Shown in pieces: positions 6,445 through 34,439 of a stretch of 64,000 nucleotides of DNA. Below the pieces are notes generated by a model, which was not told where the DNA came from, ran no database searches, and saw only the letters and a list, made by a program, of their open reading frames with translations. Each line of letters begins with the position of its first letter. Position 1 is the first letter of the stretch. The position numbers and the translations under genes are program-made. The stretch comes from Melastoma dodecandrum (taxonomy: Eukaryota > Streptophyta > Magnoliopsida > Myrtales > Melastomataceae), in contig JARUPY010000290.1 of assembly GCA_029817715.1 (NCBI GenBank), positions 1,798,001 through 1,862,000 of the forward strand. Reading direction: 5' to 3'.

Positions 6445-8673
6445 TCAGGAGTTCCTACTACCCATTTCCTTCCCGCTAAACTCCACGCCGGTGCTGAAGG
6501 ATGCAGTGGCTTCTGCCGTCATACTTATATTAGCACCCCCGATGGAAGTAATGAGAGCCGATAAGCCACTGTTTGGGTTCCCGCTGGCAGCCATGCCTAA
6601 TCCAAGGAAGTCGAGCGTAGTGTGTTTTGGACCTAACACGGATGAGGTCCCCATCATCAGCTCCTTCAACCCGGAACTGCCATCAGGAATTAACCCGAGC
6701 CCAAGTCCACCAGTGGTGATCGTGCTTTTCGTCAAGTCTGCATTACCAGGGGTCCATTGTAAGCTATCCTGGTCCTGAACAGATGAGGCAGGACTGGGGG
6801 CGATCCCCAGACCACGAAGAAGCGAAGCGTTCGTTGCTGTCGCGCCCATTTGAGCGGCCTTTTGGAGGAGGGCTGTCGCAGAGAGTGCCGGTTGCAGCGG
6901 CGGAGCGTACTGCCGCCGTTCCTGCCCTGCAGGGCCAAAGATTGAGGATGATGATGTGTGGTTGGTTGAGAGGCCGAGCGATATGGGTTCAATGGATGAA
7001 GAAGGTCCGAGATCAGAGGGATGCTTGGGCTGGGAAACCACCCGGATCGTATCTGTGAAGGGTGGAAAAGACGCTGGCAGGGGAGGCTGAAAATTTGCAC
7101 CTGTTGTTGGGGATGCAAATAACCCCGCTGGAATGCTGTTGCTCATTTTACTGTTGCTGCATGAGCTAGTGCTGCTGCTACTAATTCCTCTGATAACACT
7201 GGTCGTCGCTGGCGGCACCTCTTCCATAACTTGAGGAGGAGCCGGAGATTCTTGTAACCCTGAAATGTTAGCACGGCAAGCAGATCAAACTTGGATTATA
7301 GTACCACCAACGATGCATTAGTCCAACCTGATCTCTCTCTCTCTCTTTTAAGTTTATTTATAAATCAAACTCAGCCAAAAAGAGAATGAGCAACAAATAT
7401 CCTATCAGGAGTCTCTTCATCGAACCTCGTTGCTTAAACTTTGATGAAGAAGATGACAAAGTTAACTCACAGACAACAGCCGTCGTCCAAAACAATATGC
7501 TCCAATAGAACTCAACAGAAGTTTCAGATAGAACAAGAATTAAGACCAAGAAAAAACTGCTACTATCCAATAAACAATTAGAACCAATTTAGTTGTAAGC
7601 CTTGTTTAAGAAAAGAATAACTCGAGTGAACAAGTATCAAACAGACAACAATGCAATGAATAGCAAAAGGCAACTTACCAGCTGCCTGATCAGCCAACAA
7701 TGATGGCAAAACAGTAGCTGGGGAATTGATGACAGCAGTGGGTGAAGCCAAAACAGGAGGAGAAGCAGGCTTCTGAGGTTTCACGTCGGATTCTGGACCA
7801 GGATCACCTGGAGCTGGAGCCAGAACAGGAACCTGAACCTGACCCTGGCCCTGTACCTGAGCCTGAGCTTTCGTGCTTTCCTCAGCCAAAGCATCACAGA
7901 ACGCCCTGTGTGTGATGAAGCTATCCCTCCTGCAAGAAATAATCAATTGGCGACCCATTTCACAAAAACTAGCAGTTGAAATCCTAAGTTTTACCAAACC
8001 TAATCTTCTGATAGAGAACAATTAATATGAGATGGGAGAAACACCTCGAGAACAAGGTTCCACAGTCGCACTTATACTCCCTAGTGCCACAAATCTTAGA
8101 ATGAGCCTTCCAGTCAGACTGTACAGCGTACTTCTTCGAGCACTTATCGCATTTCCACTTCTTCTCACCGTGTTTTCGGCAGAAATGCTTCTTTATCCCC
8201 GTCAGATCGCCGAGTGCCCTCGAAGGATCATGATGCACGCAGGATGTCTCTGGACAGACATAGACCTTCTTCTTCACTTCCTGACTCGACCTCTGCCTCA
8301 ACTTCCAGGGCAGATTATGGCCCCTCCTGTGAAGTTGCAGGTTCTGGTCTCGCTGGAATCCCTTGTTGCAGATTTCACACACAAACCGATTGGTCGCCAA
8401 CAGGGTCTTCGGAGACAGCGCTATAACCTCCGCGTCCGGATCTGCCCTCCGAATCAGAAGAACAGGAACAGATCCTCATATCATCAAATCAATCGGCAAA
8501 AACAAGACTAAACTCGTTGAAAAGGAGGGATCCTTACCGGGCATTCCAGGGAGGTTCCGCTTCTTCTTGGCAGCAGTAGGTGGCGGCTGAGACGGAGTCG
8601 GCCGATGATCGCCGGAGGAGGAAACGCTAGCTTCCCCAGAAGCAGTGGATGAATTATCATGTTCCTCAGGCAT
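6445..8673 (-). CDS. INDETERMINATE DOMAIN (IDD) C2H2 zinc-finger transcription factor
   Basis: Four minus-strand exons, 8673-8538, 8441-8045, 7929-7679 and 7259-6445, join in frame to about 532 residues. Exon 1 encodes a Ser-rich start and the KKKRNLPGMP basic signal. Exon 2 holds most of the ID domain: DPDAEVIALSPKTLLATNRF, the C2H2 finger CEICNKGFQRDQNLQLHRRGH, a second finger with HFCRKHGEKKWKC, and the C2HC fingers continued in exon 3 (SRRDSFITHRAFCDAL). Exon 4 is a Ser/Gly/Pro-rich activation region with the conserved LSATALLQKAAQMGATA block and the TLDFLGLG motif. The two C-terminal blocks are typical of the JACKDAW/MAGPIE/IDD4-5 side of the family. IDD proteins bind an 11-bp TTTGTC-containing site and partner with GRAS proteins (SCARECROW, SHORT-ROOT, DELLA) in the nucleus. 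All splice phases fit the known IDD gene structure. The exact paralogue cannot be fixed without a tree. Confidence 0.95.
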
Positions 8674-9470
8674 ACCTCAAAAAAAAAAAGGCCCCAGGGG
8701 TAGAAAAACAAAACCAACTACCCTCTTTTTGTTGTCCCCCCTCCCCACCCCCCTCTATCTGTTGTTGCTTGCTTGACTGCTCCTTGGATTCAACCTAAGG
8801 GACAAACAAGAAGTGAGGGCAACATCTGGGGGATTTGCCAAACTATCCTATCCTTCATTTTGGACAATAACCCAACAAAAAACACAGACACGTGATTAAA
8901 GAAAAACAAGAGAACTATTATGAGATGTGAGGCAAAAGGGTAAAGGATCCACTTTTGGAAAGGAAAAAACCACAAAATGTTCCCATCTTTCTAGGGTTCC
9001 GATCCCCTCCAACCCCACCCCCACTTCTCAGCTACCAGTCAAATTCCCACTTTTTTCCCCATGTAAAACAATTTAGTTTTCTGTCACCCACTTTAAACCT
9101 TTTCTTCCTACACCCAACCTACCAGCTCCTAATGACCCGAAGAAATCCCTTCTCCCTCGAATCATCCGGGACACACCCACGACTCATGTTCAATTTCCTG
9201 AGTTGAGAAAGAAATCCCACGATGCCGCGCCCCCCCCCCCCCCCCCCCCCCAACCCAAAATCACTAAAACTGAGCCAACCAGGTGAATTGCTTCAGAGGA
9301 GGGACATGAAGGGGGAAAAGGGGGAGAAGGAAGGGAGGGATTGCTGGCGGAGGACAGACAGACCCGAAAAGTCAAAAGAGTGACTCTCCTCTCGTTACTG
9401 CCCAAAGTTGTCGTCTTTCTTTTCGTCGTCTAAACTAGTCTTTCCTCCCACGCTCCCCGAACGGAGATAG
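8674..9470. other. IDD upstream region with a C homopolymer
   Basis: Promoter and leader side of the minus-strand IDD gene. It is pyrimidine-rich on plus, with a run of 23 C residues at 9230-9252. No other gene is recognised. Confidence 0.45.
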
Positions 9471-9474
9471 CGGT

Positions 9475-10207
9475 GTACATGACGGTTACGTAATTTATTA
9501 AATACTATTAAAATTTTTTAATAAATTTTATTAAAAGTTTATCGTTACTAACTAAGTCAATGCGAATTTAGTAAAAAATGTAGTAAAAAAGTCAACGCTA
9601 AATTAGTAAAAAAGTATGAAAAATTTACTATTTTTTTACTGTTCAAAGAAGTTAAAGTTTACTAATTTTTTGCTAACTTTACTAAAACTTTTCCGTTAGT
9701 AAAAGTCAACTCAGATTTAGTAAAAAAAGTAGTAAAATTTACTAATATTTTTACTAACAATACGTTGACTTTACAAAAAAACTAGTAAAGTCAACGTACA
9801 ATTAGTAAAAAAGCTAGTAAATTTTACTACTTTTTTTACGAAATCTGAGTTGACTTTTACTAACGGAAATGTTTTAGTAAGGTCAGCGCCCTAGTAAAAG
9901 AAATAGTAAAATTTACTACTTTTTACTGTGCGAATTAAGTCGATAATTATTAATTGTTTACTAATTCCGGTGTCTTTTTTAGTAAAAAAACTCTTCCAGT
10001 TAGTAAAAATTTTAGTGAAGTCTTACATTTTTAGTAAATGTTTACTAATTTTGACATGTTTTTACTAAAAACATGTCAAAATTATTAATTAGAACAGTGT
10101 TTACTAATGAATTTATTAATTAGAACAGTGTTTCTGAACCTAACTCCGGACATATTTTTGATGTGAAATTACCAGTTTACCCTGGTTATTAAACTTATTA
10201 CTAATTT
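9475..10207. repeat. Left terminal inverted repeat of the MULE
   Basis: About 730 bases, matching the right repeat in inverted order. Shared landmarks are CGGTTACGT near the outer edge, CGTTACTAACTAAGTCAA, the TTTTACTAACGGAAA block, and the inner edge GTTTACCCTGGTTA with ACTTATTACTAATTTA. The repeat is built from many interspersed copies of TTTACTAA and its complement TTAGTAAA in both directions. Differences from the right arm are scattered substitutions plus block insertions and losses, so the arms are diverged. Confidence 0.85.
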
Positions 10208-11260
10208 AGGAGGTCGAAAGTTGTCATTCCGTTCGAAGTGTTCTTCCTCCCAGCGATCATCCCGTTCATCCTCCGCCTTCCCATTCCGACCGCCGCGTCT
10301 GGTGTTGCAGACCAAAGTCGGGGCGTCTCTTCTGCAAGTGGTCAGGACGACATCAGGTTTGTACTCCGCTTTCGTTTTTGTCGTTGTTTTTCCTGGCATT
10401 GCTTCCATAACCCTAATCGTGTAATTGGTAAGTTCCGAAACCTCCAATCCTAACGTTGGAGAAGTTTTGAAACCTGAAATCGCAAGGGCGGTGGTAGTCG
10501 TTTGTGGGTATTGCGGTTTTATGGGTTTGTGGGTGTTGCGGTTTTATAGGTTTGTGGGTTTTGCGGTTTTATGGATTGTCCGCTATCGAAACCTGAAATC
10601 GGCCGTTTTTCCCTATTTTTTTTCGTGTGTGATTTGGGTTTGTGGGTTTTGCGGTTTCCTGGAATCCGTCTTCCTTACCATTCACGGTCCGTGGTCCTTC
10701 TTTTGATTTGTTGGTAGTCGTCCTCATAGTCGGTGGTAGTCGTCCTGATTTGTTTGGGACTGGGTATTGCTCGTCGGAGGTAGGCTTCCTGAGGTGTTGT
10801 GTGTTGGTAGTCATCCTGATTTGGCTCAACTTGGTTGGGTATTACTTGGACTGGGTCTGTGGTGTTGTGTATACCTTGGACTGGGAATGGTTGGGTTTGA
10901 TTTTATTGGTTTGGTTTAATTTGACGAAAGCAGAAGTGGGTTTGAGTTGGTTCGGTTTATGTGGTTCGCAGCTAATTTGGTTTGGCTTTGGTTTTTTGTT
11001 TTGTTATGGTTTGGATTGTGTTTGTTTTCATTTTATTTGGTTGGAGTGGGGTCCGATCTTCATTTGGTTTGATGTTAATTTGTGATGGATTTGTGATGGA
11101 TGCTTCTTGGGTTTAAGTTGGTTTTGTTTAATTTTGTTATGTTTGAGTGGGACTGTAGGAATAAAATGAAGTTCGGTTCGTTTTAGTTATGGTTCGCAGT
11201 TTAATTAGCTTCGGTTTAATAGGGTATTTCGTGTATTTGTACTTGTTGGAAAGTGCAGAA
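10208..11260 (+). other. 5' region of the MULE-borne Ulp1-like gene
   Basis: GT-rich DNA between the left TIR and the first supported codon of the protease gene. At 10500-10660 a unit close to TTTGTGGGTNTTGCGGTTTTA recurs four times with spacing of about 27 to 75 bases. It may hold a leader exon or intron of the element's gene, but no reading frame here is convincing. Confidence 0.4.
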
Positions 11261-14200
11261 ATGGAAGGGCATTTTGCAGATTTGGCAGGACAGTTTTCAC
11301 TCGAGGCACAAGGGCTAGACCTTCCAGAAGCTGGAATTGAAGGCAACACACATGTTTCTTCTCAAAAGGAGAAGGCGAAGGCTGTGCGTGTTTCCAAGGT
11401 AACTCCAGAAACATCTTTTGTGAGTGTTGGGAGTATTCCTGATTGTAGTATTGATGGTGTCGCGGATATATTGTTACAGGATTACCTTTATACAAGGTGT
11501 AGTCCGCGAAAGTTGTTGGCTGTGCTGAATACATTTAACGATGCCAAGAGGGCTGCCCTTTGTGACTTAGGATTTGATGGGCTACTGCATCTGGCTAGTC
11601 GACAAATTCATCACAAGGCTCTGAAGTGCCTTCTGAAGTTGTTCGACCCCGTTAAGAGAGTTATGATAATTGACGGTGTAGAACACCGAATGCTCTCTTC
11701 GGATGTTGAGGCCCTGATTGGCCTTCCGGCTACGAAAGTCGATGCCCCGTTTAGCGGACACATGGACACCGTCCGGGATGAGCTGAAACAGCATCTGAAG
11801 AGGGGTAAGATTTCTCTCAAGTCAGTTGAAAGTAGTATGATGAGAAGAGATATTGCGGACTACGTATGGAAAGTGGAGGTCGTACTATTCATATTAGGAA
11901 GCTATTTGTGCCCGACGATGGCCTTCGACATCGAGAAGGAGTACATGCTCGCGACACGGGACGTTGCCTCCATTTGTAAGTTTGATTGGGCCACTCACGT
12001 GGTCGATACACTATGTAGTCAAGTGAGGGCCTTCAAAGGGCATCACACAAAGTATATAGGAGGCTGCGTCCATCTATTGCTGGTGAGACTGTATAGTACA
12101 TTGTTTGTTCTGCTTATTGACTGTATTTGGAGTGATTTTATTATTGTTAACTATTCATTGTTAATTTGTTGGATTTGTGGGCCTGAAATCCATATTCAGA
12201 GTTGTAAATGCTGATCTTGCTGAACTTGTAGGTTTTGTCGTTGTTTTAATGCCTACTAGTGTTTTTTTTACATGTCATTGGATGAAATTCTTAGAAAGTC
12301 CATTTACAGGAATCTCGCGATGTCGAAACTAACGCAGAGGAAGAAGTGGACCCTGCGAACGAATATGGGCAGATGGAAATGGTGATGCGTCAGCTGAAGG
12401 TATTCATTTCGTGTGCTGGTCTGTATCTGTTTACAATTTGGGTTGTTACTTTGATTTGAAATTACTTATTATATGATGTACTTCATAACCAGACCGTGGA
12501 ACTTTCTGTTATGAGACTCCATGCTACTAATGAGCACATCATCCGGAAATTGGGATTGATTCTCAATGAAGTTAGAAGAGAAAGAGGGCGACAAGGCCAT
12601 CCCGTTATGCAAGAAGAGCGTAGTAAGTCTGAGGAGAAGGTGGTAGGAGACGAAAACGAAGATCATGTACCAGAGGGTGTTCCGGAAGGAGTGACAGAAG
12701 GAATGGTTGATGTAAATCCGACTGATAATGTGTCCGAGCATGAGTCTCCAACGACGTTTGCCGGACATCGGCATCAGTGTACCTATAGTCGAGGTAGGCT
12801 CCACTATGATGTCGGAGAAGAGCTTGGTTCCGTATCATCCTCCTTAGAAACAACAGAATTTGCCAGAAGGCTCCGACGATTATTCGGACCCGTGTGAGGT
12901 ACAACTAGCGCGAGCTCTGAATAAACTATCTGCATTGGTTGGTGCTTCCGTGAATGAGAGTGAATCTGAGCTGAGCATGACTCCATCCGACGAGGGCGTG
13001 AAGACGCTGCTGCAAAGGAATAAAGGAAATGAGAAGAATTCTTATGAAGTCGCAGTGGATAAGGAAGGCACCGGCACCCCCACAGAAACAAAAAAGGAGA
13101 AGGATTTGGCAGGAGAAGAATGTGTTGCAGAATTCGAGGATGTTCCCACCACTAAAGTCGACAAGGAAGCTCTGGTTCCCATCGATATGGATCCGGAAGT
13201 TGGGAAAGGTACTCAAGGGGTGACGAAGATGGGGGAAGAGGTCGAAGTGCATTTGAAGGTGAAGTATGATTACATTTTTTTTGTTAACTCTTTCGAAAGT
13301 GATTGACAATTGATGGTTGCTCCACTATTTGTGACAGGAAAGTGGATCATCGACAACAGCCGTCTTCAATAGAAAGACCACTCGTTGTACGGCTGAGAGG
13401 AAGCCGTCCTCTTTTAAGAGCAGTCCATTTATCCCGCCTAAGCTGGTTACAAGGACAAGAAAGCGTGGACGGCCCACTATCCCTGATGAATAACTGGACT
13501 GCAGCATACCCACTCGTCCTGCCTCGACTGTGAGCTTCATGAGGATTAATGGGTTTATCCATTGTTGTAACTTGTCATGGTTAGGCACTGCAAAAATACT
13601 TCCCAGTGGACGTGCCCGTTAGTGAGCTGAAAACATTTACACCGGCTCAATGGTGTGGCATTGAGTATGTTTGGAATGATGACCGAGACAATAGGTTAGT
13701 GTCACTGTCTTCGGATATTGGGATATTGGGATATTGTTTAAGTTTCTTCAACATTTCTTTATAGATATTATTTGCTGCAGTGAATGTCTCTATATGACCG
13801 AGTCCGCACACGTTAATAGGCATGCGATGCGTTCTCTTATGCCACGAAGATGGATAGACAGCGATGTAAGATTACCTCTTTAATTACTAACCTTAAATGA
13901 GGATTAACCCATCTAAGTCGGCGACGCGACTATTCGTTGTTGCAGATTATAGACTTCCACGCCGTCATGCTACAAAGTAGCATGGATCCTAAAATGAGAA
14001 GGATTTGGTACCTTCCAAGTTGGTTGGGGATAAGTGCTGATTTACATGATGTTCTAAATCCACCAGATGTAGCCTGAACTAACCACGAACCGATTTCAGA
14101 ATCTTGCATCGACGCAATATCGTGCAGCCAAAATGCCCGTCATAACCAAAGCAAATGCCACAGCCTTATATGCGCACTTCAAGTCTCACATTGGGAAGAA

Positions 14201-15100
14201 CGACGAAGTGCAATGGGTAACCATCCAGTCCATGTAACTGTCTTCGTGCCTATCTCCAGCTACTTATAATTTAGTAATTTACGACATTTGCCATGTTCTT
14301 TGTTTCGTAAACTGAATGCTATGCCCGTTTGTAGATTTTTATTCCGCTTTGCGTTGCGGAATCACATAGGGCATTACAGATTGTGTCGTTCAGGACAGAA
14401 GAAGTCCTCATAATGGACACAACGTACAAAAAACTGTCCAACGTCGGGGGCAGAGCAGAGCTTCATCATCGTGTATTAAAGCTTTTAAGTGTCGTTCTGG
14501 AAGAGAATCGGGTCAAATCAAAGGCAAAAAGGTATCAATTACCAGACATTTCCAGCTGGAAAATAATATATCCGACGAACGTGCCCGACCAGATGGCTGC
14601 GGGGAATGAGTACGTCCAACTACATTACCCAATTTTCTTTTCAACTGTATGAACGTAACCAGCCGTTACACATATTATGCATTATTGTTTCTGCAGAAGC
14701 GAATGTGGAATATATGTCATGAAATTCATGACATTGGCTGAACCCCCGTTTGGTGCTGAAGAAGTGGTAAGTTCATTAACTCATTCGACGTAATTACTGT
14801 CAAACACTTACAGTCTTTGTGTAGTTAGACCGTATGATCCTACCTGTGTTAGACTGTATTTGTGCTGCAATTCTGGATAGACACTTGGCTTTCTTTTCAC
14901 TGACAGCTGTCCCGAAATGCATGTATGTGTGTGTTAGACCGTAGGCATTGCTGATAGGTTGCGGATGGTTGTTAGCATGATCAAATGGCCTGGGAATGAG
15001 GTTAAGAAAAGAATACATCAGAAAGTTAAAGATGATGCGAACAAGAGGAGTAAGAAGTCGGAGAGCAGTGATGCTTCAACATGGGATGCAGGTCGATAGA
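11261..15100 (+). CDS. Ulp1/C48-like cysteine protease carried by the MULE
   Basis: Multi-exon gene. Supported exons: 11261-12082 (MEGHFADLAG onward; a Ulp-MULE N-terminal region with SPRKLLAVLNTF and LIGLPATKVD), 12310-12399, 12493 to about 12800, about 12857-13258 (acidic, Lys/Glu-rich), 13338 to about 13487 (AT-hook-like RKRGRPTI), 13583-13695, about 13945-14070, about 14100-14217, 14335-14611, 14698-14766 and about 14946-15100. The protease core has WIFIPL-like sequence, His in ESHRAL (14364-14366), Asp in VLIMDTTY (14416-14418), Gln in DQMAAG and Cys in ECGIYVMKF (14704-14706). The catalytic triad of SUMO-type proteases thus appears retained, although the usual Trp after His is Arg. The join between the 12.5-kb and 12.86-kb exons does not fit one frame, so there is a frameshift or an unresolved intron. 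Family knowledge: such proteins remove or process SUMO; their role in transposons is unknown. Confidence 0.65.
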
Positions 15101-15369
15101 CACTTGACTGACCAGATGCATCCTGTACATTCCTTGAGCAAGACATGCCCAAATCCTGATTTTGACCACGCTGTTGTAGTGAACTTTATGCAGTCTTTGT
15201 GTAGTCCTTTGTTGTAATAGCTGGCAACCTGCTCAATCGAAGTTGCAATTTTGGAATATGTAAATGTTGTGACAGAATAGTCCGTGTGTACATAGCGTAC
15301 CTTTGGTAACTGAATGAACAGGTTGATGTTTTGTCAAAATACTGCCGTTATGCTGTCGAAATTTTAAGT

Positions 15370-17077
15370 TATGGGTACACCTTTAACTGTCCATAAACTG
15401 AATTATCTTCACAGCGCACATCCTCTTCTATTTCAAAACAACGTTCACTACAGACGTTAGGTAGTTTCTCGTTATTGAGGCCACGATCATAAAATCGTTG
15501 AGAGGGACCCACGCCAGTTTCTTCCTTGCTACCGTGAATGACATACTCTTTACGAATCTGGTCACCAATATTATACGCAACACGATTATCAACCCCCGTT
15601 AAACCTTCATTCTCCACACTACTACTCTCCAACTCCAACGTCAATGATTGAATTTTTTTCTGAAGCATCCGAAATGCGTTGTGTGATCTTCCAGCAAGAA
15701 AACACATTCGCCGACATGCAGTCATGAGAATACCCTGTCGTAGACCATTGATGTCGACACCGTATTCACGGCAAGATAGAACTTCAGAACTTGCACTTTT
15801 AGCTAACTTTGTCCACCTTTTATTGACCAGATGCTTTGGTATGGTCAAGAATCCTTCAACTTTCGCAACGTGAAAGAGGTGGACACACGAAAAACCAAAT
15901 GTCTCAAAATGTAAGCAGCTGCAACTGAGTTGGACATTTTGTTTGCCAAATGACACTTGCAATCATCTATGCTCACCGTCATAACACGAAAGAGTGTTTA
16001 CCCTCGCTATATTCCCGTCAGCTATATCTTCCACATAAAATCGTGCTTCCTTTTTCATTTCGGACTGACTTCTACGAAAAGAACTCAGGGTGTACAATTG
16101 ACTTGCATCCTCCTCAAATCGGCGCAAGTGTTTGCCTCCCATCCTCCTCAGGGTGTACAATTGACTAGCGGATGTTTGCCTCCCATGATCTGTGTATGAG
16201 TACGTAGGAGCCAAGTGTAGTTCGCAATGGTTTCATAACTCATTAAAGCAGACCCAAACACAGTAGTTTGATGGTGATGATTGACACCGACGATGATCAC
16301 CATTTGCATTCCATAATTGTTTGTCTTAAACGTTGAGTCCAGTGCTACGACATCGCCGAATGATTGGTAATCAGTGATTGAGGTACTGTCCGCCCAATAT
16401 ATGCGTGTCACTTCATTATTTCCTACATGTGATTCGAACGTCATACCACTCTCATTGTTCCTCCTAGACAGGAGATATGCAAGGACTGAATCACAACGAC
16501 CAGCCACCCCAGCAGACTCTTCCTTCAACTTCCGGTTATTGAGGTCCTTCATTAAGAAACCGGCACATGAGTGTCCACCAGATGCGTGTACTACTAGTCG
16601 CATAATATCACACTGTCTAAATCCAACGTCAAGCATTCGACGGACAAAGGTCATATCTTCGTCGCAAACTTGCCGCCTTTCTCGCATGAAATATGACAGA
16701 CGTTCGCTCACCATGTCATGATTGTGTTCCAACTGAACTGCAACCAAATTCCACTGCCTATTGACCTCCACTCTCGCTTTAAAGAACTAGTTGCAACCGT
16801 TCTTGACAGATGCTCTAACCTGACTTCTCGCTGTCAACATAGGGACATCGGAACACTCGCCTTCCCTTGAACAAACCCACTTTCTCATGACGCATTCACC
16901 GTTTCTTAATTTCTGCCGATCTTTTTTCCGAACTGAAAACCCATGAACCATTGCATACATTTTAATGAACTCTTCAACTTCTTCGGCAGTACCAAATGAC
17001 ATATTCAACATCTGTTCTTCATTCATATCACTGACTATATTGAAGAAGTGATGAACATCCTGCTCACCTACATTCAC
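15370..17077 (-). pseudogene. FAR1/MuDR-type MULE transposase, broken
   Basis: Read on minus from 17077. The FAR1-type DNA-binding region comes first (FGTAEEVEEFIKMYAMVHGF, then CVMRKWVCSREG and EHNHDMV). The start of the MULE transposase core follows (DVVALDSTFKTNNYG, with the first catalytic Asp; YTWLL; MGGKHP). After a gap a SWIM zinc-finger region resumes (CSCLHFETFGFSCVHLFHV, about 15925-15865) with a Leu-rich tail. Three kinds of break are visible. An in-frame TAG at 16787-16789 falls in the DNA-binding region. The sequence between MGGKHP and QLYTLSSFRR is missing, where the second catalytic Asp, the C/H motif and the third acidic residue belong, and a GGKH-containing segment is duplicated there (16080-16190). 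An in-frame TGA at 15963-15965 precedes the SWIM region. It cannot make a working transposase. Confidence 0.85.
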
Positions 17078-17103
17078 ATTAATGATGAAAGGTTATCAAT
17101 ATA

Positions 17104-17640
17104 TTAGGAATGATGAATAATAATTGCAGAATCAACATCATGTTCTTCACCGAATCTTGACTTCTCCGCGTTCAATACACTTTCCATTTCTTCAGGCCAA
17201 CGACGACGCAAACCCGAAATCCCCCACAATCCGAACAAGATGAACCTTTTCGACCACCTGCAGCGGACGAATATCAACCCGTCACTCCGCCTGCAGCCGA
17301 AGAACACTCCCCTGTCGGACCAGCTGCAGCCGAAGAAGATCAACATGACACTCTACCTACAGCCGAAGAGGAGGGACTATGCCGAAGACCTGGGACGATG
17401 CCCTGCAGCCGAAGATCTCGGAGGATGACCTGCAGCCGAAGATCTAGGACGAAGACGACCGCCGGCCGAATATGTGGGACGAAGACGACCTGCACTAGCA
17501 AATGCAGAAGCCCAAGATCTGGAACGATGACAGAATGCCGGCTGGGAGGAATCAGAGACGAAGAGCAGCTGACGAATTGGAGAATCCTTGAATGACCATC
17601 TGCAACTTGGACTATTACCTCTGCCTACGGGAGCAACACC
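17104..17640. repeat. Degenerate CTGCAGCCGAAGA minisatellite inside the MULE
   Basis: From about 17260 to 17510 the plus strand repeats a short unit around CTGCAGCCGAAGA at irregular 25-50 base spacing. Examples begin near 17291, 17324, 17359, 17402 and 17431. In one plus frame it reads as PPAAEEHSPVGPAAAEEDQ and then continues open to 17595. It sits between the transposase start and the right TIR. It may be a captured coding fragment or a subterminal repeat; I do not recognise the protein. Confidence 0.5.
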
Positions 17641-17824
17641 TCGTCAGGAAGACTGGTGCAACGACTCCAAATAGAATTACAGACGTAAACCACCAGCCAA
17701 TTAAATGCGGATATGGGGGTTAAACTTAGTAAAATTTATGTCACTAGACTTAAAAATCAGTAATTAAGTTAGTAAATTATTTACTCGGGGTCACTTAACA
17801 CAAAGAAAATTAGTAAAATGTTTC

Positions 17825-18598
17825 GTAAATTAGTAATAAGTTTAGTAACCAGGGTAAACCGGTAATTTCACATCCAAAATAGGTTCGGAGTTAGGTTCGG
17901 AAACACTGTTCTAATTAGTAAATTCATTAGTAAACACGTTCATTTTTTAGTAATAGTTTACTAATATTTTTAGTAAAAACATCTCAAAATTAGTAAACAT
18001 TTACTAAAAACGTAGGACTTTACTAATAGTTTTACTAACTGGAAGAGTTTTTTACTAAAAAAGACACCAGAATTAGTAAACAATTACTATTTTTTTAGTA
18101 AATTTGCGCTGACTTTACTAAAACTTTTCCGTTAGTAAAAGTCAACTCAGATTTATAAAAAAATAGTAAAATTTACTAATATTTTTACTAACAATACGTT
18201 GACTTTACTAAAAAACTAACAACTTTTAGTAAAGTCAATGTACAATTAGTAAAAAAGCTAGTAAATTTTACTACTTTTTTCACTAAATCTGAGTTGACTT
18301 TACTAACGGAAAAGTTTTAGTAAAGTCAGCGAAAAATTAGTAAACTTTAACTTCTTTGAACAGTAAAAAAGTAGTAAATTTTCGATACTAATTACTAATT
18401 TTACTAATTAGTAAATTTTACTAATTAGTAAGTTTTCCATACGTGGTTTACTAATTACTAATTTTACTGAAAGAAGACCGGATTTTAGTAAATTTTACGA
18501 TATTTTTTACTAAATTCGCGTTGACTTAGTTAGTAACGGTCAACTTTTAGTAAAATTAGTAATTAGTAAACCACGTAACCGTTACGTGCACGTACCGT
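17825..18598. repeat. Right terminal inverted repeat of the MULE
   Basis: About 770 bases, inverted relative to the left arm. It contains the same TTTACTAA/TTAGTAAA lattice and ends with GTAACCGTTACGTGCACGTACC. It carries an extra AT-rich palindromic stretch near 18390-18440 made of back-to-back TTAGTAA units. Confidence 0.85.
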
Positions 18599-18956
18599 TA
18601 GCCGCTTCCCCAAATGGACAAGTTCTTCCCATTTCAAACCCCGTCGGTAGCTTTTGTTTTAGGGGGGGAGTGTAATAAAATGAATAATTGTACGACCACG
18701 TCCTGACACGTCTCAAAGATGCTCGTATTTTTTTTGTTAGTAATTAAGCGAGGTTTGTCTAAGAATTAGTTTTAGAACAAATTGTTCGAATATGCTCGCG
18801 GCACGAGAGATTTACAAATTTACCGGTCGCTTTAGAACTGAAAAACGACTCGCACTTTAGAATGGCGATAAAAACATTAAAAAAAATCACAATTCGAAAT
18901 CAAGGAAATTAAAGAAATTCACGGCGTGAAATTTTGAAAACCTTTTATTAGTGTGG

Positions 18957-31875: not shown

Positions 31876-33382
31876 CTGTCAGTTCTCTAGAGAGAGAATC
31901 GACTATTATGCTTTTGTCCGAAGATAAGTATTCAACATCGAATTTATATTAGTCAAACCACTCTTACAACCTCAAAAGTTTAGTCTGCCTAGCCTCTTTG
32001 AGGTTCAGACTCATAAACCTTTTTACGTAGGTCGAATTAGAGCGTACTAAGAATTTCTTAGGTGCCAAAAAAGATGTAAAAGGCCTTTATTCCGTTTTTC
32101 AAGGCCAATACCTCCTTTTCATGTATCGGGTATCGGAGTTCGTACCCCTTAAAACTACCCGACCAGTACTTACAAATAGGTTCCGGTTTTCTTCCTTTGA
32201 TTTTCAGAACACAGCCCCCCAAAACTCGTCAAAAGCATCAATTTCCAGGACTGACTCATCCTTGTCAGAAGGTAAGGCAAGTTGCGGTGAATTCTTAACT
32301 TTACCCTTAATCTTTTGAATAGCTTGAGTATCATCATCTTCCCATGACCAAGGATTCGTAAAATATGTCTTGTTTGAAATCCTCCCTATATCTTGGGAAA
32401 TATCTTTTACAAACTTTCGGGCATAGTTAACAAATCGACGAAACCTTTGGACTTACTTCCTATCCTCAAGTTTGTCAGAAAAATAAAAAACTTTCTCGGC
32501 AATATGGCTTTGTAATTTAATCTTCCCTTTTCTCAATTTTCATGCCTAGAAAATTAACTGACTCCTTAAACCATTTTATCTTCCTTTCAGACAGAATCAT
32601 GCCTTCCTAGCGAAAGACATCAGTCACCTTATCATTATCTATTTTGCGCTGAACGATGCCTGGAACATTTTTCGGCCGAACGACATCACCAGCAATTCAA
32701 ACATCCCTTATGGAGCATTGAAAGTAGTAAGATGAATAGAATCTTCTTCCATCTTTACTTGTCAGTACACACTCTTCAAGTCAAATTTGGAAAAGAATTT
32801 TGGTTGGCTCAAACTTATTCTATCAATAAGGTCTCCTGCCGTAGGAATCTTATCGCCATCATCTTTTGTAGTTTTGTTAAGCTGACGATAGTTTATAACC
32901 ATTCGTACTTTACCTTGCACCAGCTCGGCATGGTTTATTACCATAAAGACATGACTTGAGTGTGGACTATAATTATCCCTAATCAAGCCTTTTCCAAGCA
33001 ACTCAGGAACCTGTTTGTCAAATTCCTCATCCATTTCACCCGTATATGTAATATTTCTGGCTCTTATAATGGTTCTGGGATCTTCATACCAGTTAGAACT
33101 TCTAGTATTCGTTGGAGAAAACAGAGTTTGCACCCATAAATCGTTCTCTTCTAGCCGTGTATCACCACGTTGAGCTCGCACTCTGAAAGCTCTTGCACAT
33201 GGCGAATCACCACAATACTCTGTCTGTTTTACCAGATAGAACCCAAATTTTAACCTTAACTTAGGCTTTTGTAGAGTACAGATTTTCACAATCGTGGACA
33301 TCAAGTTGTGAAATAGACATCTAGTTGTGAAATAGTAGAGTACAGATTTTGTGAAATAGACATCTAGTTGGCCATTGCTCAA
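31876..33382 (-). pseudogene. Pararetroviral reverse transcriptase / RNase H, broken
   Basis: The minus frame 33382-32762 contains the caulimovirid polymerase entry region: SPHSSHVFMVINHAE, VRMVINYRQLN and FFSKFDLKS motifs near its end. Homology continues past stops and frameshifts to about 31876: an RT palm segment (QRKID), EGMILSERK, FLGMKIE, and an RNase H start (IDAFDEFWGAVF near 32250-32210, with the first catalytic Asp). A deletion near 32630 joins QRKIDND almost directly to the EGMIL segment and removes the interval that holds the YxDD polymerase box. The frame contains several stops. The 5' part (33273-33370) has short duplicated segments. No active enzyme can be made. Confidence 0.75.
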
Positions 33383-33646
33383 TAAACTTACAGACTTCAG
33401 GAATATTGAACAAAGAGTTATCCGGATAGGTAACTCTCATCGTCCTTAATTATTCCTCTCTTGTTTGGTCTACAGGGTCATCATAGACCGGTAGTGACGC
33501 AGCGAGCGCTGATCGGACTGCCCGACAAACATACGGTTGAACGGGACGACGAACTCAAATCAGAGTTCAAAGGTAAATGAGAGAAATCTCAAAGGTTTTC
33601 TTCAAAGATAATGATAATTGTCCACCATTCGGAAGCCAAAGGACTC

Positions 33647-33951: not shown

Positions 33952-33970
33952 ACTCAAGTCGACTTCAGGA

Positions 33971-34077
33971 GGGAGGTCAAGTCGCAAGTCGAGTTGGCCG
34001 CATCATTGGAGGTCAAGTCGCAAGTCGAGTTGGCCGCATCATTGGAGGTCAAGTCGCAAGTCGAGTTGGCCGCATCA
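33971..34077 (+). repeat. 36-bp tandem repeat, three copies
   Basis: The unit GAGGTCAAGTCGCAAGTCGA followed by GTTGGCCGCATCATTG occurs three times, adjoining the 24-bp array. Both arrays share GTCGA-rich composition and may derive from one source. Confidence 0.9.
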
Positions 34078-34439
34078 GGTAGTGATCCCTGTCTATACCC
34101 CACGATCCTTCTCGTGTGTTGAGACAGGGTTGTGGAATCGACCGACCTTCGAGACATTTCCTCAACTAGCGGTGGTGCAGATGCTTCTGTTGGACAAGAC
34201 ACAATCATGTCATTTTCCACATTGCTTGCCCAAGAGGAAACTTCATAGAGCGTATGAGTTCTTGGCTCTCTCAGATATGGCATTCTAATAGGCAAATGCC
34301 TATCAGTTCTAAAATTACTAGCTGACGATTCTCCCAACATCAAATTAATCTCAACCTCTCTGTCGGATATTCGCCGCACTAATAGGTCTAGAACTACTAC
34401 CCGATTCAGTCATAACCCAACTTCTTGGCCAAGTTAACT

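What the first reader, a model, noticed from the sequence alone, without database searches (positions are those of the whole stretch)
9475..18598. Long-TIR Mutator element pairing a SUMO-protease-like gene with a dead transposase
One element carries both a Ulp1/C48-like gene, whose His, Asp and Cys catalytic positions all appear present, and a convergent FAR1/MuDR transposase ruined by two stops and loss of the catalytic core. Ulp-bearing MULEs are known (Kaonashi-type), but an apparently better preserved protease than transposase in the same copy hints that the protease is constrained separately, or that the element was mobilised in trans. The TIRs are unusually long (about 750 bases).
Basis: partly seen in the sequence, partly recalled or inferred. 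Interest (0 to 1): 0.8.

Follow-up and report, generated by a model that had tools for sequence, protein, structure and literature searches.

The report
Dead copy of a two-gene transposon
This stretch is an old, broken copy of a plant jumping gene that carries a SUMO-protease-like gene beside its transposase; both genes are broken here, while relatives in the same genome keep them open, and the long ends of these elements are packed with a repeated 7-letter word that evolution has protected.

Summary
The element is real: about 9463-18609, TIRs of 749 and 787 bp, an 11-exon Ulp1/C48 gene (11261-15099, +) and a convergent FAR1/MULE transposase (17026-15369, -). It is a decayed member of a family with 1,390 recognisable termini in the genome; 94 of 141 scored protease exons have a convergent scored transposase within 12 kb. 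Between subfamilies both genes are under purifying selection (C48 omega 0.13-0.24, transposase 0.22-0.29): the protease is a standing second gene of the element. Very short derivatives imply trans-mobilisation within the family. ULP-carrying MULEs, with and without TIRs, are already known. What looks new: each TIR is an array of about 30 TAGTAAA words, individually conserved (3.3% divergence inside, 25.5% outside; simulated control 21.9 +/- 2.7% inside) and nearly absent from the interior. This recalls the arrays bound by VANDAL anti-silencing proteins and can be tested by binding assay. Elements are also mosaic.

The parts
9463..18609 (.). whole element (degenerate MULE, about 9.15 kb)
   Evidence: ends by comparison with relatives; length 9,147; no TSD found for this copy
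9463..10211 (+). left TIR, 749 bp, 26 copies of TAGTAAA counted on both strands
17823..18609 (-). right TIR, 787 bp, 33 copies of TAGTAAA; 81% identical to the left TIR over 627 aligned columns
11261..12082 (+). protease gene exon 1 (274 codons; weak Plant mobile domain match, below cut-off)
12310..12399 (+). protease exon 2
12493..13258 (+). protease exon 3 (frameshifted and with a stop here)
13338..13487 (+). protease exon 4 (donor lost)
13585..13694 (+). protease exon 5
13781..13865 (+). protease exon 6
13946..14029 (+). protease exon 7 (donor lost)
14100..14216 (+). protease exon 8
14335..14609 (+). protease exon 9, catalytic His, Asp and Gln positions
14697..14766 (+). protease exon 10, catalytic Cys position
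14938..15099 (+). protease exon 11 with stop codon
12755..12756 (+). lesion: 8-bp deletion, frameshift
12845..12847 (+). lesion: stop TAG (L039 has it too)
13488..13489 (+). lesion: exon 4 splice donor reads GA
14030..14031 (+). lesion: exon 7 splice donor reads AT
14368..14370 (+). lesion: Trp>Arg directly after the catalytic His; Trp in the 14 aligned relatives
15369..17026 (-). FAR1-type MULE transposase pseudogene, convergent to the protease gene
16787..16789 (-). lesion: stop TAG in the transposase
15963..15965 (-). lesion: stop TGA in the transposase
16128..16170 (-). lesion: core deletion with about 43 bp of filler (net -442 bp)

Best explanation
The window holds an old relic of a large Mutator-like family with young members. 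Its complete form (9.4-9.8 kb) carries two convergent genes, a FAR1-type transposase and an 11-exon ULP/C48 protease, between TIRs of about 760-800 bp. Shown: membership, anatomy, lesions in both genes of this copy, family-level purifying selection on both genes, very short derivatives with intact ends, and conserved TAGTAAA arrays in the TIRs. Inferred: the transposase moves full and deleted copies in cis and trans; an element-encoded DNA-binding protein (the transposase, or the N-terminal part of the ULP protein) occupies the TAGTAAA array; the C48 domain removes SUMO or a similar tag from transposase or chromatin at the element and so favours transposition or opposes silencing. In this copy both genes and one end have decayed without significant constraint.
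For: Family size: 1,390 termini within 3 mismatches, 0 in the reversed control. Pairing: 94 of 141 scored protease places with a convergent scored transposase within 12 kb. Lesions. Selection: 7 between-subfamily pairs give C48 omega 0.13-0.24, exon 1 0.18-0.32, transposase 0.22-0.29. Neutral-looking private changes in the window copy. Age: own TIRs 81% identical against 99.7% in L031. Exact 9-bp TSDs in L026, L027, L031 and L032. Arrays: 24-36 words in each of 18 TIRs, position-wise conserved. Trans-mobilisation: 17 of 27 facing pairs among 100 listed termini span 460-1,543 bp.
Against: No RNA, protein or binding data. No TSD for this copy. C48 exons lean towards constraint (P 0.078, 0.063). 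Only 20 of the 93 other paired places were read, chosen by rank in the exon-1 score, so the selection estimates rest on few subfamilies, and mosaic exchange violates the single-tree picture. What binds TAGTAAA is unknown.
Confidence: 0.8

Rival explanations
1. In this copy the protease was kept by selection of its own (host use, or service to other copies) after the transposase died.
For: Catalytic His, Asp, Gln and Cys remain; C48 private changes lean silent (5:6, P 0.078; 9:12, P 0.063).
Against: Frameshift, stop, two lost donors and Trp>Arg beside the His; exons 2-4 have 0 silent: 12 replacement private changes; the whole gene looks neutral (P 0.40).
Confidence: 0.06
2. The TAGTAAA array serves transposition only: it is a multiple binding site for the element's own transposase, and the protease acts elsewhere.
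For: Mutator TIRs are known to hold transposase binding sites (PMC3310237, abstract start); elements with little room for anything but TIRs have spread; preferred spacings of 20, 12 and 8 bp suggest ordered binding.
Against: About 30 sites per end is far more than the one site per end that I recall for maize MURA (recalled, not looked up); no binding data.
Confidence: 0.45
3. The protease is a host gene fragment captured by chance and carried passively.
For: MULEs capture gene pieces frequently (PMC2528002, section 10).
Against: Purifying selection on exon 1 and C48 between subfamilies, full splice-site conservation in L024, L031 and L032, and the recurrent convergent pairing.
Confidence: 0.05
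4. The motif conservation is not selection but repeated copying (gene conversion or slippage) of one simple repeat.
For: The TIRs are AT-rich and contain nested inverted repeats; TIR types are exchanged between elements.
Against: Spacers differ by 19-26% while the words at the same places differ by 3-7%; the edges of the word are sharp; conversion would carry the spacers along.
Confidence: 0.15

Closest known systems
ULP1-containing MULEs of grapevine and melon (Benjak 2008, PMC2528002, sections 8 and 10 read; van Leeuwen 2007 known only through that paper)
   Same: ULP sequence downstream of the transposase, in either orientation, in TIR and non-TIR MULEs including Jittery-like ones; TIRs up to 710 bp in one listed grape family (Mutavine-7; whether that family carries ULP was not checked); 9-bp TSDs where found
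   Different: Here many places have open transposase frames (47 of 150 scored at 700 aa or more), selection on both genes is measured, and the TIRs are TAGTAAA arrays; no sequence comparison with grape or melon elements could be made
Kaonashi (KI-MULE) of Arabidopsis (seen as passages in PMC2528002 and PMC13317346)
   Same: MULE with an ULP/C48 gene in reverse orientation to the transposase gene, multicopy
   Different: KI-MULEs are non-TIR and have three genes according to the review; this family has long TIRs and two genes were found
VANDAL elements with VANC anti-silencing proteins (passages of PMC5735166 and PMC10398659)
   Same: MULEs with a second protein and dense arrays of a short word in non-coding parts; VANC21's YAGTATTAY shares TAGTA with TAGTAAA; the review says some VANCs carry an Ulp1 domain
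   Different: VANDALs lack TIRs; VANC has DUF1985 and DUF287, not found here; arrays here lie in both TIRs and run in both directions; anti-silencing is not shown. PMC5735166 itself has no occurrence of 'ulp1' in its main text
MULEs with PMD proteins (passages of PMC5418596)
   Same: MULE carrying a protein with a plant-mobile-domain-like part; the authors speculate about anti-silencing
   Different: There PMD is fused to the transposase; here the match is weak (E 0.014, 15.0 bits against a cut-off of 34.9) and lies in the protease gene

Membership tests
Mutator-like elements (MULE), FAR1-type | MULE transposase domain | tested here: met
   PF10551 2.3e-13 in the window piece, 1.4e-26 with FAR1 1.3e-16 in L031
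Mutator-like elements (MULE), FAR1-type | long TIRs | tested here: met
   749 and 787 bp here; 750-832 bp as delimited in 13 relatives
Mutator-like elements (MULE), FAR1-type | TSD of about 9 bp | tested here: met
   exact 9-bp repeats in L026, L027, L031 and L032; none found for the window copy, L034 and L039
Kaonashi (KI-MULE) | ULP/C48 gene convergent with the transposase | tested here: met
   Peptidase_C48 1.9e-13 in L024; orientation
Kaonashi (KI-MULE) | no TIRs | tested here: not met
   TIRs of about 760-800 bp in most of the 14 elements measured, so it is not filed as a KI-MULE
Kaonashi (KI-MULE) | common descent with Arabidopsis KIU genes | not tested
   no plant reference sequences at hand; the protein database gave no relative among 7,993 candidates scored
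VANDAL / VANC | DUF1985 in the second protein | tested here: not met
   no DUF1985 up to E 1 in the full L024 protein; the genome search for PF09331 rang nowhere, controls included, and decides nothing
VANDAL / VANC | dense array of a short word in non-coding parts | tested here: met
   TAGTAAA arrays; VANC21's own YAGTATTAY has 1 hit in five loci scanned
VANDAL / VANC | protein binds the word and removes methylation from its own family | not testable with these tools
   needs binding and bisulfite data

The most novel reading that the evidence does not exclude
The ULP protein is a sequence-specific anti-silencing factor of a TIR-MULE: its N-terminal part reads the TAGTAAA array of both TIRs (about 60 sites per element) and brings a deSUMOylating C48 domain there, protecting only its own family. 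This would be a VANC-like system that arose in a TIR element, and the array would let gene-less derivatives share the protection.
Probability: 0.2. Interest if true: 0.75.

Novelty: new member of a known kind. Interest (0 to 1): 0.48.

Why it matters
Why ULP genes recur in plant transposons is unexplained (the 2026 review PMC13317346 calls the domain's function in these elements unknown). This genome offers a large family with young copies, open frames for both genes, measurable selection on the protease, very short derivatives and a defined DNA word in the TIRs. That gives a concrete protein and a concrete DNA target for asking whether transposon ULPs are local anti-silencing factors or transposition helpers.

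Tried and rejected
Separate constraint on the protease of this copy: not supported. Unique chance capture: rejected. Strict linkage of TIR type to the protease N-terminus: suggested by segment trees but broken by L026, whose two TIRs are of different types. VANC21's own word YAGTATTAY: 1 hit in five loci scanned. Fold of exon 1: AlphaFold mean pLDDT 35.9, unusable, no fold search made. Relatives in the protein database: none at E <= 0.001 among 7,993 candidates scored. DUF1985 in the genome: undecided. Peptidase_C48 in the genome: 57 matches from 150 scored of 316 candidates, not pursued. Alignment artefact as the cause of motif conservation: 40 simulated pairs gave 21.9 +/- 2.7% inside the word, minimum 15.8, against 3.3% observed. 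Citrus CitMULE (passages of PMC4334395): no ULP mentioned, short degenerate TIRs, so not the same; PMC9569675 only cites the melon paper. The organism was not identified.
Full report
Observation. The inverted repeats reported at 9475-18598 are real. Comparing ends with relatives sets the element at about 9463-18609 with TIRs of 749 and 787 bp. The transposase has two stops and a net 442-bp loss in its core; about 485 bp of a relative's length are replaced by about 43 bp at 16128-16170.

The family. The left TIR has 818 candidate places in the 373-Mb genome (40 scored), exon 1 of the protease 776 (141 scored) and a transposase piece 854 (150 scored). A 29-base terminal word occurs 1,390 times with up to 3 mismatches and 0 times when read backwards; I infer several hundred elements. 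Of the 141 scored protease places 94 have a convergent scored transposase within 12 kb, most of them 5.0-5.5 kb away; the only 2 same-strand cases are cross-pairs of two neighbouring elements. Of the 150 scored transposase places 47 have an open frame of 700 aa or more, and 32 of the 94 paired ones. In the 14 elements measured, those without large internal deletions are 9.1-9.8 kb; the two TIRs of one element are 99.7% identical in L031 and 99.3% in L040 but 81% here. The window copy is therefore old and others are young.

Gene structure and lesions. Aligning 15 copies (the window and 14 relatives) gives an 11-exon protease gene of 912 codons in L024. L024, L031 and L032 have no lesion; 12 of 15 have at least one. 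The spliced L024 protein matches Peptidase_C48 at 1.9e-13 and Plant mobile domain only weakly (0.014, below cut-off). For the C48 part of L031 the only PDB sequence up to E 1 is yeast Ulp1 (1euv), E 0.013, with the His and Asp motifs inside the aligned stretch. The window copy has an 8-bp deletion after 12755, TAG at 12845-12847 (also in L039), donors lost at 13488 and 14030, and Trp>Arg at 14368-14370 next to the catalytic His. Of 21 transposases L031, L039 and L040 have no lesion and L032 only a stop at codon 717 of 722; 18 of 21 have something. L024 keeps the protease but not the transposase, L039 the reverse; among these copies only L031 has both free of lesions.

Selection. Pairwise dN/dS (Nei-Gojobori, my script, 19 pairs). 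Seven pairs lie between subfamilies (L024-L031, L024-L032, L024-L040, L031-L040, L031-L037, L037-L040, L033-L031): C48 0.13-0.24, exon 1 0.18-0.32, exons 2-4 0.35-0.54, transposase 0.22-0.29. They share sequences and are not independent. Closer pairs are nearer neutrality (L024-L026: C48 0.70, exon 1 0.45, exons 2-4 0.71, transposase 0.50), as expected if most copies die after insertion; L024-L036 and L024-L037, which are mosaic, lie between for C48 and transposase (0.46-0.49). The window against L024 gives C48 0.37, exon 1 0.36, exons 2-4 0.73, transposase 0.58: a pairwise value mixes the constrained past with the time after insertion. Changes private to the window copy under a strict rule: protease 6 silent, 14 replacement, 1 stop (24% silent expected, P 0.40), of which C48 5:6 (P 0.078); transposase 4:19 (21% expected, P 0.74). 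A looser rule: exon 1 3:8, exons 2-4 0:12, C48 9:12 (P 0.063), transposase 5:17 (transposase codons 285-460 counted from Met24 left out because of the deletion).

Trans-mobilisation. The terminus search listed the first 100 exact matches; they contain 27 adjacent facing pairs under 20 kb, of which 17 span 460-1,543 bp, too short for either gene (I did not read these 17). One derivative of about 2.5 kb on C272 is flanked by a matching direct repeat of 10-11 bp; about 1 kb lies between its TIRs and was not examined. Such copies need a transposase in trans. Nothing shows whether the window copy moved that way.

The TIR word. TAGTAAA (either strand) occurs 24-36 times in each of the 18 TIRs of 9 elements, where shuffles give 1-2. 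In the five loci profiled it is nearly confined to the TIRs; in the window it occurs 26 and 33 times in the TIRs, 3 times in the 7.6-kb interior and 7 times in the other 54.9 kb. Between the left TIRs of L031 and L040 bases inside the word (as found in L031) differ by 3.3% and outside by 25.5%; 40 simulated unconstrained pairs, aligned the same way, gave 21.9 +/- 2.7% inside; 22 of 32 words are intact at the aligned place against 3-9 in 20 simulations. Six ordered pairs pooled show a sharp edge: the seven positions differ by 0-9%, the adjoining bases by 29-33% (pairs overlap in sequences). Four further comparisons, three of them right TIRs, give 2.9-6.5% inside and 19.0-25.7% outside. Against the window copy the contrast is weaker (6.4% inside, 13.7% outside with L024; 6.1% and 18.7% with L031), as expected for a relic. 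Spacings cluster at 20, 12 and 8 bp. The TIRs also fold back on themselves (folding energy -239 against -129 for shuffles in the window TIR). I read this as an array of protein-binding sites kept by selection in active lineages. Which protein binds is not known.

Mosaic structure. L037 is close to L040 in left TIR and exon 1 but to L024 and L039 in C48 and transposase. L026 and L037 differ by 13-39% up to about 4.0 kb and by 4-15% beyond; the switch lies near the start of the C48 exons. L026's two TIRs are only 84% identical and match different types. Protease modules have thus been exchanged between subfamilies.

Comparison with the literature. PMC2528002 (sections 8 and 10 read, other passages seen) reports ULP-bearing MULE families in grapevine with and without TIRs and in both orientations, Jittery-like families included, and cites melon and rice; it calls KI-MULEs non-TIR. 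PMC13317346 (passages) says some VANDALs carry a VANC gene with an Ulp1 domain of unknown function. PMC5735166 and PMC10398659 (passages) describe VANC proteins on arrays of short words in non-coding parts; the main text of PMC5735166 has no occurrence of 'ulp1', so I could not confirm the review's statement there. PMC5418596 (passages) speculates that PMD proteins captured by MULEs serve anti-silencing. PMC3310237 (abstract start and passages) treats tandem TIRs. In my eight paper searches I saw no listing that points to a MULE whose TIRs are such an array, but I read only the items named here and the library is open-access only, so this is weak evidence of novelty.

Verdict. A dead member of an interesting family. 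The finding as framed falls; the family-level facts (selection on both genes, short derivatives, word-array TIRs, modular exchange) stand and are testable.

Noticed in passing
window 9463-10211 and 17823-18609; TIRs of L024, L031, L037, L039, L040: About 30 TAGTAAA words per TIR, conserved place by place while spacers diverge; spacings cluster at 20, 12 and 8 bp.
   Followed up: yes
L037, L026, L031 against L024, L039, L040: Elements are mosaic: TIR plus protease N-terminal half and C48 plus transposase have different nearest relatives, with a switch near the exon 4/5 boundary; L026 has two different TIR types.
   Followed up: partly
e.g. G000:C123:737369-738910, C91:12423-13965, C37:176269-177699: Facing pairs of perfect termini only about 1.43-1.54 kb apart: short derivatives little longer than two TIRs; not read.
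   Followed up: partly
L025 (C539) and L035 (C233): These two copies share transposase lesions and the right-flank letters shown, so they look like one insertion present twice (allelic contigs or a segmental duplication); genome counts may be inflated by such pairs.
   Followed up: no
L040, L041, L042: In this subfamily the open frame of exon 1 begins with a Met at position 54 of the window's exon 1, so its protease may start later.
   Followed up: no
window 7984-8475 (-): Open frame with C2H2 zinc-finger look (INDETERMINATE-domain-like by recall, not searched) about 1 kb from the element's left end, reading away from it: the insertion lies upstream of that frame.
   Followed up: no
window 33954-34409 (-): Open frame ending in a threefold repeat of about 12 residues, next to a retroelement-like frame at 32762-33436; neither searched.
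   Followed up: no
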